A DNA stretch of 64,000 nucleotides. It comes from Xanthomonas sp. AM6 (GTDB lineage Bacteria > Pseudomonadota > Gammaproteobacteria > Xanthomonadales > Xanthomonadaceae). The notes beneath the pieces were generated by a model. It worked only from the letters and a program-made list of their open reading frames with translations, had not been told where the DNA came from and ran no database searches. Made by a program: the position numbers and the translations under genes. Below are positions 35,792 through 37,199 of the stretch, piece after piece. Each line of letters starts with the position of its first letter. The first letter of the stretch is position 1. The stretch is taken from NCBI RefSeq assembly GCF_025665335.1, contig NZ_CP106869.1, positions 1,886,501-1,950,500 of the forward strand. The letters run 5' to 3'.

Positions 35792-37054
35792 ATGGCTGAC
35801 AATATCCTGACCCGCACCGCGGGCAACGTGTCGGAGTGGGTGAACGAGCGCGCCCCGGGGCTGATGCCGTTCTACCGCAAGCATGTCGGCGAGTACTACG
35901 CGCCGAAGAACTTCAACATCTGGTACTACTTCGGCTCGCTGGCGCTGGTGGTGCTGGTCAACCAGATCGTCACCGGCATCTTCCTGACGATGCACTACAA
36001 GACCAGCGCGGCCGAGGCGTTCAACTCGGTCGAGTACATCATGCGCGACGTCGAGTGGGGCTGGCTGATCCGCTACATGCACTCCACCGGCGCCTCGCTG
36101 TTCTTCATCGTGGTGTACCTGCACATGTTCCGCGGCCTGCTCTACGGCAGCTACAAGAAGCCGCGCGAGCTGGTGTGGATCCTCGGCATGCTGATCTACC
36201 TGGTGCTGATGGCCGAGGCCTTCATGGGCTACGTGCTGCCGTGGGGGCAGATGTCGTTCTGGGGCGCGAAGGTGATCATCTCGCTGTTCGGCGCGATCCC
36301 GGTGATCGGCAACGGCCTGACCGAATGGATCATGGGCGACTACCTGCCGTCCGACGCCACCCTCAACCGCTTCTTCGCGCTGCACGTGATCGCGTTGCCG
36401 CTGGTGCTGCTGCTGCTGGTGGTGCTGCACCTGGGCGCGCTGCACGAGGTCGGCTCCAACAATCCCGACGGCGTGGAGATCAAGAAGGGGCCCAAGGGCA
36501 ACCGCTGGGATCCGAACAAGCCGGCCGACGGCATTCCGTTCCATCCGTACTACACGGTCAAGGACATGGTCGGGGTCGGGTTCCTGCTGCTGATCGGCGC
36601 CTTCATCATCTTCTTCGTGCCGGCCTTCGGCGGCCTGTTCCTGGAGCACGACAACTTCACCGAGGCCAACCGCCTGGTCACGCCCGAGCACATCAAGCCG
36701 GTGTGGTACTACACGCCGTACTACGCGATGCTGCGGGTGGTGCCGAACAAGCTCGGCGGCGTGCTGGTGATGTTCTCGGCGATCGCGATCCTGTTCCTGG
36801 TGCCCTGGCTGGACCGCGCCAAGGTCAAGTCGATCCGCTACCGCGGCTGGATTTCGCGGGTGATGCTGGGCGTGCTGGCGGTGTGCTTCGTCTGGCTCGG
36901 GGTGATCGGTTCCGGTCCCGGCACCGATGCCAGCGAGACCTACATCGGGCGCGTGCTGACCGTGCTGTATTTCGGATTCTTCCTGACCATGCCGATCTGG
37001 ACCACGCTGGACCGGACCAAGCCGGTGCCGGAGCGGGTGACCACCCATGACTAA
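35792..37054 (+). CDS. petB: Cytochrome b subunit of the bc1 complex
   Basis: Eight-helix quinol-oxidising core subunit, 420 residues. Heme-ligand helices are recognisable in RYMHSTGASLFFIVVYLHMF and FFALHVIALPLVLLLLVVLHLG. The cd1 segment is GYVLPWGQMSFWGAKVI. The Qo loop reads PEHIKPVWYYTPYYAMLR, with PVWY where mitochondria and alpha-proteobacteria have PEWY; I believe this is a regular feature of beta/gamma-proteobacterial cytochromes b. It starts 3 bases after petA, and its stop overlaps the start of a 50-codon gene. Confidence 0.95.
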   Translation: MADNILTRTAGNVSEWVNERAPGLMPFYRKHVGEYYAPKNFNIWYYFGSLALVVLVNQIVTGIFLTMHYKTSAAEAFNSVEYIMRDVEWGWLIRYMHSTGASLFFIVVYLHMFRGLLYGSYKKPRELVWILGMLIYLVLMAEAFMGYVLPWGQMSFWGAKVIISLFGAIPVIGNGLTEWIMGDYLPSDATLNRFFALHVIALPLVLLLLVVLHLGALHEVGSNNPDGVEIKKGPKGNRWDPNKPADGIPFHPYYTVKDMVGVGFLLLIGAFIIFFVPAFGGLFLEHDNFTEANRLVTPEHIKPVWYYTPYYAMLRVVPNKLGGVLVMFSAIAILFLVPWLDRAKVKSIRYRGWISRVMLGVLAVCFVWLGVIGSGPGTDASETYIGRVLTVLYFGFFLTMPIWTTLDRTKPVPERVTTHD

Positions 37055-37199
37055 GCCCCTGATCACCGTGCTGGCCTGTTTCGGATCCGTGTCGCTGCTG
37101 TCCTTCGTGGGCTATCTGCTGCCCTGGGGGCAGATGGCGTTCTGGGGCGCGCAGATGATCGGCTCCCTGCTCGGTGCGACCGCGGGAGGCCAGGCATGA
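37047..37199 (+). CDS. Unlisted 50-residue membrane mini-protein resembling cytochrome b helix C-cd1
   Basis: A complete 50-codon frame between petB and petC. Its ATG overlaps the petB stop region by 8 bases (ATGACTAA) and its own stop overlaps the petC start (ATGA), the pattern of a translated gene. The product has one hydrophobic helix (LITVLACFGSVSLLSFVG), then GYLLPWGQMAFWGAQMIG, then a short Gly-rich tail. The middle aligns with petB GYVLPWGQMSFWGAKVI; over 28 aligned residues I count 18 identities. It therefore copies the helix C-cd1 hairpin that lines the quinol-oxidation site. It may be a small bc1 accessory subunit or a decayed duplication kept for translational coupling. I know of no name for it. 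Confidence 0.7.
   Translation: MTKPLITVLACFGSVSLLSFVGYLLPWGQMAFWGAQMIGSLLGATAGGQA

What the first reader, a model, noticed from the sequence alone, without database searches (positions are those of the whole stretch)
37047..37199. Hidden 50-residue gene inside the cytochrome bc1 operon that copies the Qo-site segment of cytochrome b
Sequence: a complete frame with ATG overlapping the petB end by 8 bases and a stop overlapping petC by 4. The product has one hydrophobic helix and GYLLPWGQMAFWGA, nearly the petB cd1 sequence GYVLPWGQMSFWGA; 18 of 28 aligned residues match. Family knowledge: helix C-cd1 of cytochrome b lines the quinol-oxidation site. Inference: it could be a small bc1 subunit or assembly regulator mimicking part of cytochrome b, or a duplication kept for coupling petB to petC translation. 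I know of no described protein of this kind.
Basis: partly seen in the sequence, partly recalled or inferred. Interest (0 to 1): 0.82.

Follow-up and report, generated by a model that had tools for sequence, protein, structure and literature searches.

The report
Young chimeric mini-gene between petB and petC
A 50-residue membrane mini-gene seems to have been born inside a respiratory operon when pieces of its two neighbouring genes were copied and fused; it is kept, under selection, in most sampled species of one bacterial clade, although its job is still unknown.

Summary
The frame is real and correctly placed: 37047-37199, overlapping petB by 8 bases and petC by 4. It is more than a copy of the cytochrome b cd1 segment. 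It is a three-part mosaic: codons 1-19 copy the petC start (signal peptide), codons 20-45 copy petB codons 144-169, and the last bases resemble the end of petB. A tandem duplication with internal deletion fits best. The ancestral state, petB and petC overlapping directly by 8 bp, is seen in 11 of 20 genus genomes and 22 of 23 readable loci of other genera. The frame occurs in 9 of 395 family genomes, all in one genus, and in 9 of 11 members of one clade, always 50 codons, without indel or stop. Amino acids are constrained (omega 0.31-0.46; 0 of 160 neutral open simulations as low), though simple pN/pS is weaker evidence. Hydrophobicity is kept. The Qo-type motif PWGQM survives in only 3 of 9, so 'Qo-site mimic' is not supported as the shared function. 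Most likely it is a translated single-span membrane peptide that serves as the coupling cistron between petB and petC. A bc1 accessory role is possible but untested. Two clade members lack the gene.

The parts
37047..37199 (+). 50-codon frame (mini-gene) between petB and petC, stop included
   Evidence: orthologs in 9 of 20 genus genomes, all 50 codons
37047..37103 (+). part 1: copy of the petC 5' end (petC codons 1-19, signal peptide), sitting on the ancestral petC start site
   Evidence: 42/57 identical to petC nt 1-57 in the window; 38-46 of 57 in 7 of 9 genomes, not above shuffles in G170 and G201
37104..37181 (+). part 2: copy of petB codons 144-169 (end of helix C and cd1; helix names from recall)
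   Evidence: 65/78 identical in the window, 54-65 of 78 in all 9 genomes, always the same petB place
37172..37195 (+). part 3: probable copy of the last ~24 nt before the ancestral petC start, now with a stronger Shine-Dalgarno (GGGAGG) for petC; joins part 2 at a shared CGGTGC (overlaps part 2 by 10 nt because the joint cannot be placed exactly)
   Evidence: 22-nt test: 14/22 in the window, 16/22 in G170, 11 to 16 in all 9, best place in the expected register each time; SD duplex -10.3 versus -6.5 kcal/mol
37047..37054 (+). 8-bp overlap of petB end and frame start (ATGACTAA)
   Evidence: the same 8-bp overlap joins petB to petC in the 11 genus genomes without the insert and in 22 of 23 readable loci of other genera
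37196..37199 (+). ATGA overlap of frame stop and petC start
   Evidence: ATGA in all 9 genomes
35792..37054 (+). petB, cytochrome b (donor of parts 2 and 3)
   Evidence: Pfam PF00033 2.4e-69, PF00032 7.9e-37
37196..37942 (+). petC, cytochrome c1 (donor of part 1)
   Evidence: Pfam PF02167 1.3e-27
35168..35788 (+). petA, Rieske subunit, first gene of the operon (start read from the sequence; identity recalled, not searched)
   Evidence: the mechanical ORF 35093-35788 starts further upstream

Best explanation
Origin: in one clade of the genus, the stretch from petB codon ~144 to petC codon ~19 was tandemly duplicated. Most of the second petB copy was then deleted between two CGGTGC-like sites. 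This left a 149-bp insert made of petC 5' end, petB cd1 and petB 3' end. Working: the new frame sits on the old petC start site, overlapping the petB stop by 8 bp. It ends in ATGA on a new petC start that has its own, usually stronger, Shine-Dalgarno. Ribosomes would therefore pass petB -> mini-ORF -> petC by termination-reinitiation, and the mini-ORF is an in-line coupling cistron. Its product is a 50-aa peptide with one hydrophobic span, N-in by the positive-inside rule, with the cd1-like tail on the periplasmic side. Selection keeps it in frame and hydrophobic. Shown: the source pieces, the distribution, conserved frame and overlaps, purifying selection under a codon model, kept hydrophobicity, stronger petC SD in 8 of 9. 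Inferred: the two-step history, translation, coupling, topology, and that the product is tolerated or useful in the membrane.
For: Source pieces. Ancestral direct 8-bp petB/petC overlap in 11 of 20 genus genomes and in 22 of 23 loci of other genera with a petC behind petB; 4 more of the 27 loci looked at had no petC there. Nine orthologs of exactly 50 codons with both overlaps and no gap in 201 aligned columns, while the stretch after petC varies 184-189 nt in the same 9 genomes. Omega 0.313, LRT p 3.8e-8; 0.35-0.46 with shared branch scaling and other base frequencies. Of 160 neutral simulations kept open, the lowest omega was 0.47 (F3x4) and 0.59 (F1x4), against 0.35 and 0.46 observed. Span hydropathy 1.97 versus 1.34 in neutral open simulations (5 of 1000 as high); charged residues 1.0 versus 2.8 (18 of 1000 as low). 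petC SD -9.4 to -10.3 in 8 of 9 ORF genomes versus -6.5 in all 11 without. Overlapping pairs were coupled in 13 of 14 tested cases in Haloferax and E. coli (PMC6728339, abstract read).
Against: No expression or ribosome data. Two clade members, G186 and G208, lack the insert, so the operon can do without it. G170 keeps the insert with a weaker petC SD (-3.8). The peptide evolves fast: mean pN 0.18 against 0.10 for the petC signal peptide and 0.013 for petB. The simple pN/pS of 0.63-0.67 is only mildly low: 19 and 44 of 1500 neutral simulations are as low at GC 0.65 (kappa 2 and 4), and at GC 0.50 83 and 204 of 1500. Staying open in all 9 is not rare by itself: 7-11% of simulations at GC 0.65-0.70, about 20% at GC 0.80, 2-3% at GC 0.50. 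Pure coupling does not need amino-acid constraint, so the peptide itself may matter more than this account says.
Confidence: 0.66

Rival explanations
1. The peptide is a new accessory subunit or assembly helper of the cytochrome bc1 complex. The petC signal sequence serves as an n-to-p membrane span in place of helix C and presents a cd1-like segment on the periplasmic face, near PetB or PetC.
For: Amino-acid constraint beyond an open frame and a kept hydrophobic span with few charges. Operon position. Topology of the parts fits (recalled: helix C runs n to p and cd1 lies on the p side). Precedents: subunit IV of Rhodobacter sphaeroides bc1 (PMC10041115, abstract and start of the introduction) and CydX of cytochrome bd, in which no single residue was required for the tested resistance phenotype (PMC6005532, abstract).
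Against: The cd1 motif PWGQM is lost in 6 of 9. Two clade members do without the gene. Fast protein evolution.
Confidence: 0.22
2. Neutral relic: a recent duplication scar that happens to stay open, with no function.
For: Open in all 9 in 7-11% of neutral simulations at GC 0.65-0.70 and about 20% at GC 0.80; pN/pS as low as observed in 204 of 1500 under the most lenient setting, GC 0.50, kappa 4. The insert is absent from two clade members.
Against: Omega 0.31-0.46 with 0 of 160 neutral open simulations as low. Open and pN/pS as low together in 0-5 of 1500 simulations across the 8 settings. No indel over 0.88 substitutions per site of tree length. Hydropathy kept.
Confidence: 0.07
3. The insert is kept for the stronger petC ribosome-binding site or an mRNA structure; the peptide is a by-product.
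For: petC SD stronger in 8 of 9. Codons 46-50, which hold the SD, show no amino-acid constraint: pN/pS 1.28.
Against: Covariation is poor: covariation term +0.81, 4 of 50 pairs with double changes. No Rfam match at gathering score. It does not explain purifying selection in codons 4-19 and 20-45. G170 keeps the insert with a weak SD.
Confidence: 0.15

Closest known systems
Overlapping co-directed gene pairs translated by termination-reinitiation (PMC6728339, abstract read)
   Same: ATGA stop/start overlap, with a Shine-Dalgarno inside the upstream frame
   Different: Here a new 50-codon cistron has been wedged into a pair that already overlapped, so one junction became two.
CydX (37 aa) of cytochrome bd oxidase (PMC4325964, search listing; PMC6005532, abstract) and CcoM (36 aa; PMC10433244, search listing; its complex, cbb3 oxidase, recalled)
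   Same: Small hydrophobic protein in a respiratory setting; CydX tolerates substitutions
   Different: Those are reported subunits; this one has no biochemical evidence and is a chimera of neighbouring genes, found here in one genus only.
Subunit IV of Rhodobacter sphaeroides bc1 (PMC10041115, abstract and start of the introduction)
   Same: Extra membrane protein of a bacterial bc1 would be the parallel
   Different: No common origin tested; I recall no cytochrome b or c1 pieces in it.
Cytochrome b, Pfam PF00033
   Same: Residues 15-44 match at 30.1 bits, above the 27.2 cut-off
   Different: 30 of 189 positions and no histidine; it is a fragment, not a cytochrome b.
mgtQ, the short frame between mgtC and mgtB of Salmonella (PMC8092293, abstract and section titles)
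   Same: Small in-operon frame that affects translation of the next gene
   Different: By its section titles mgtQ works through stem-loops and acidic residues; here residues 5-45 hold no acidic residue in any of 9.

Membership tests
Cytochrome b (PF00033) | Profile match over the domain | tested here: not met
   30 of 189 profile positions; 4 of 9 orthologs match at E<=1
Cytochrome b (PF00033) | Haem-ligating histidines (recalled) | tested here: not met
   No histidine in any of the 9 products
Qo-site cd1 segment | PWGQM motif kept | tested here: not met
   In 3 of 9 orthologs: G000, G170, G201
Translationally coupled gene pair | Overlapping stop and start | tested here: met
   8-bp overlap with petB and ATGA with petC in 9 of 9
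Translationally coupled gene pair | Downstream translation depends on upstream translation | not testable with these tools
   needs reporter or ribosome data
Small respiratory-complex subunit (CydX-like role) | Hydrophobic single span, under selection | tested here: met
   by hydropathy and codon model, not by structure
Small respiratory-complex subunit (CydX-like role) | Found in the purified complex or needed for its activity | not testable with these tools
   no such data; structure prediction switched off
Small respiratory-complex subunit (CydX-like role) | Present wherever the complex of that clade is present (my criterion) | tested here: not met
   2 of 11 clade genomes have the pet genes without it

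The most novel reading that the evidence does not exclude
A new bc1 accessory peptide built from the complex's own parts: the signal sequence of cytochrome c1 carries a cytochrome b cd1 segment to the periplasmic face, where it acts on assembly or quinol oxidation. It arose within one genus, and species with the ancestral junction, with the insert, and without it inside the carrier clade are all still there.
Probability: 0.2. Interest if true: 0.85.

Novelty: new variant of a known kind. Interest (0 to 1): 0.55.

Why it matters
It is a small gene whose birth can be read step by step. Donor pieces, junctions, the pre-insertion state in relatives, lineages without it inside the carrier clade, and selection after birth are all visible in one genus. 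Such cases help in asking how new membrane micro-proteins and new cistrons enter essential operons. If the peptide binds bc1, it would be a subunit made of fragments of the core subunits, of which I know no example (recall).

Tried and rejected
Relatives outside the genus: a genome-contig scan with the window product confirmed none (592 pattern matches, 0 confirmed). I take them to be ordinary cytochrome b genes and did not read them. That collection may leave out near relatives by its own note. Plasmids: 1 record, annotated cytochrome b.

RNA element: no Rfam match, poor covariation. Chance frame: rejected by orthologs and selection. Qo mimic as shared function: rejected by motif loss. Lipoprotein reading of the invariant Cys11: dropped because only 10 residues precede it (judgement, not tested).

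Absence in G186 and G208: loss by recombination between the petC-like repeats would need a crossover within a few nt, between the petB stop and codon 4, in both cases (my reading). Import of an insert-free allele is as good; I could not decide. Flank trees reject the 9 carriers as one clade (p-AU 2e-8 and 1e-74), but their inner branches disagree and some are long.

Organism name: the tools give none.

Full report
The frame. Window 37047-37199 holds a complete 50-codon frame on the + strand. Its ATG lies in the last 8 bases of petB (ATGACTAA) and its TGA shares ATGA with the petC start at 37196. petB and petC match Pfam cytochrome b and cytochrome c1. The product is MTKPLITVLACFGSVSLLSFVGYLLPWGQMAFWGAQMIGSLLGATAGGQA.

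What it is made of. Residues 17-45 match the window's own cytochrome b at 62% (E 1.4e-8). DNA comparison in each of the 9 genomes shows the source pieces. Nucleotides 1-57 align to petC nucleotides 1-57: 42 of 57 in the window and 38-46 in 7 of 9 genomes. In G170 and G201 this piece is no longer above shuffles, and G170's best match falls elsewhere in petC. Nucleotides 58-135 align to petB from nucleotide 430 in 9 of 9 genomes, at 54-65 of 78. A 22-nt stretch at the petC ATG aligns best, in the expected register, to the ancestral start site: 14 of 22 in the window, 16 in G170, 11 in five genomes. The last are weak, and 4 of the 22 bases are the shared start-site letters. Copy and source both begin with CGGTGC (CGCTGC in G206's copy), which is also where the petB piece ends. 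The simplest history is a tandem duplication from petB codon ~144 to petC codon ~19, followed by a deletion at short shared sequence inside the second petB copy. The two steps are inferred.

Distribution. With the window product, full-length matches appear in 9 of 20 genus genomes. A profile of these 9 finds 9 of 395 family genomes, 1 of 54 genera, at E<=1e-11; a much diverged copy would be missed. The 11 other genus genomes have petB and petC overlapping directly by 8 bp, so the insert is 149 bp. I also read 27 loci of other family genera (L006-L032, the best matches). In 23 a petC-like CxxCH follows petB, and in 22 of these petC can start in the same 8-bp overlap; in one the first ATG lies 2 nt behind; 4 have no petC there. 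The direct overlap is therefore ancestral. On a tree of petA-petC plus 2 kb downstream, without the insert, 9 of the 11 genomes on one side of a 100/100 split carry the frame. With 8 outgroup loci from other genera these 11 form a clade, but with moderate support (87/71). G186 is nested among carriers (100/100, 95/96, 100/100 downstream). G208 is inside the 11 (83/86 for a nested place, unresolved). The flank trees keep the 9-to-11 split (100/100 and 99/99) but disagree inside it, so exchange between species is likely in this region. The gain is best placed on the stem of the 11; G186 and G208 lost the insert or imported an old allele.

Is it a gene? All 9 frames are 50 codons. The 201 aligned columns hold no gap, while the stretch after petC varies from 184 to 189 nt in the same genomes. 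A codon model gives omega 0.313 over codons 4-50 (LRT 30.3, p 3.8e-8), 0.296 for codons 4-19 and 0.262 for codons 20-45. Other assumptions give 0.35-0.46. In 160 neutral simulations (GC 0.66, kappa 3.5) kept only if all frames were open, the lowest omega was 0.47 and 0.59 under the two frequency models, against 0.35 and 0.46 observed. The plain count is weaker: pN/pS is 0.63-0.67. Neutral simulations are as low in 19 and 44 of 1500 at GC 0.65 (kappa 2 and 4), in 12 and 30 at GC 0.70, in 3 and 2 at GC 0.80, and in 83 and 204 at GC 0.50; open frames and such a ratio together occur in 0-5 of 1500. Residues 5-26 keep a mean hydropathy of 1.97 where neutral open simulations fall to 1.34 (5 of 1000 as high). 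Charged residues in 5-45 stay at 1.0 on average against 2.8 (18 of 1000 as low), and no acidic residue occurs there (26 of 1000 simulations as low). So the amino acids appear constrained, chiefly in membrane character.

What it does. The new frame uses the old petC start site (SD -6.5 kcal/mol in 8 of 9, -5.0 in G170). petC now starts behind an SD of -9.4 to -10.3 in 8 of 9 genomes, the exception being G170 at -3.8; all 11 genomes without the insert have -6.5. Both junctions overlap, as in pairs shown elsewhere to be coupled (PMC6728339, abstract). I therefore read it as a coupling cistron whose membrane-inserted product is under selection. Whether the product also works on bc1 is open. The Qo-mimic reading predicts that the cd1 motif is kept, and it is not: PWGQM remains in 3 of 9 and 4 of 9 still match the cytochrome b profile.

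What is in print. Seven full-text searches of the open PMC library listed, by title and start of abstract, no paper on a frame between petB and petC or on such a chimera. The phrase 'between petB and petC' had no occurrence in the 12 papers listed, of 149 that held two of its terms. Subscription journals and preprints were not searched.

Limits. One genome per species, unnamed. No expression data. No structure prediction. Codons 1-3 overlap petB and were left out of the codon-model tests and of the statistic.

Noticed in passing
37077-37079 (codon 11): Cys11 of the mini-protein is invariant in 9 of 9 orthologs, although it lies in the fast-evolving signal-like part; unexplained.
   Followed up: partly
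37056-37058 (codon 4): Residue 4 is Pro in all 9 mini-proteins (MTKP), where the petC starts printed have Arg (MTKR, MSKR, MSRR); a shared change at or soon after birth that removes one positive charge.
   Followed up: partly
L160 (G186) and L161 (G208): Two species inside the carrier clade have the direct petB/petC junction; loss by repeat recombination or import of an insert-free allele.
   Followed up: partly
37172-37195: The petC Shine-Dalgarno is stronger in 8 of 9 carriers than in all 11 non-carriers of the genus, suggesting re-tuned petC translation after the insertion.
   Followed up: partly
40025-40083: Short tandem array of 7- and 14-base units.
   Followed up: no
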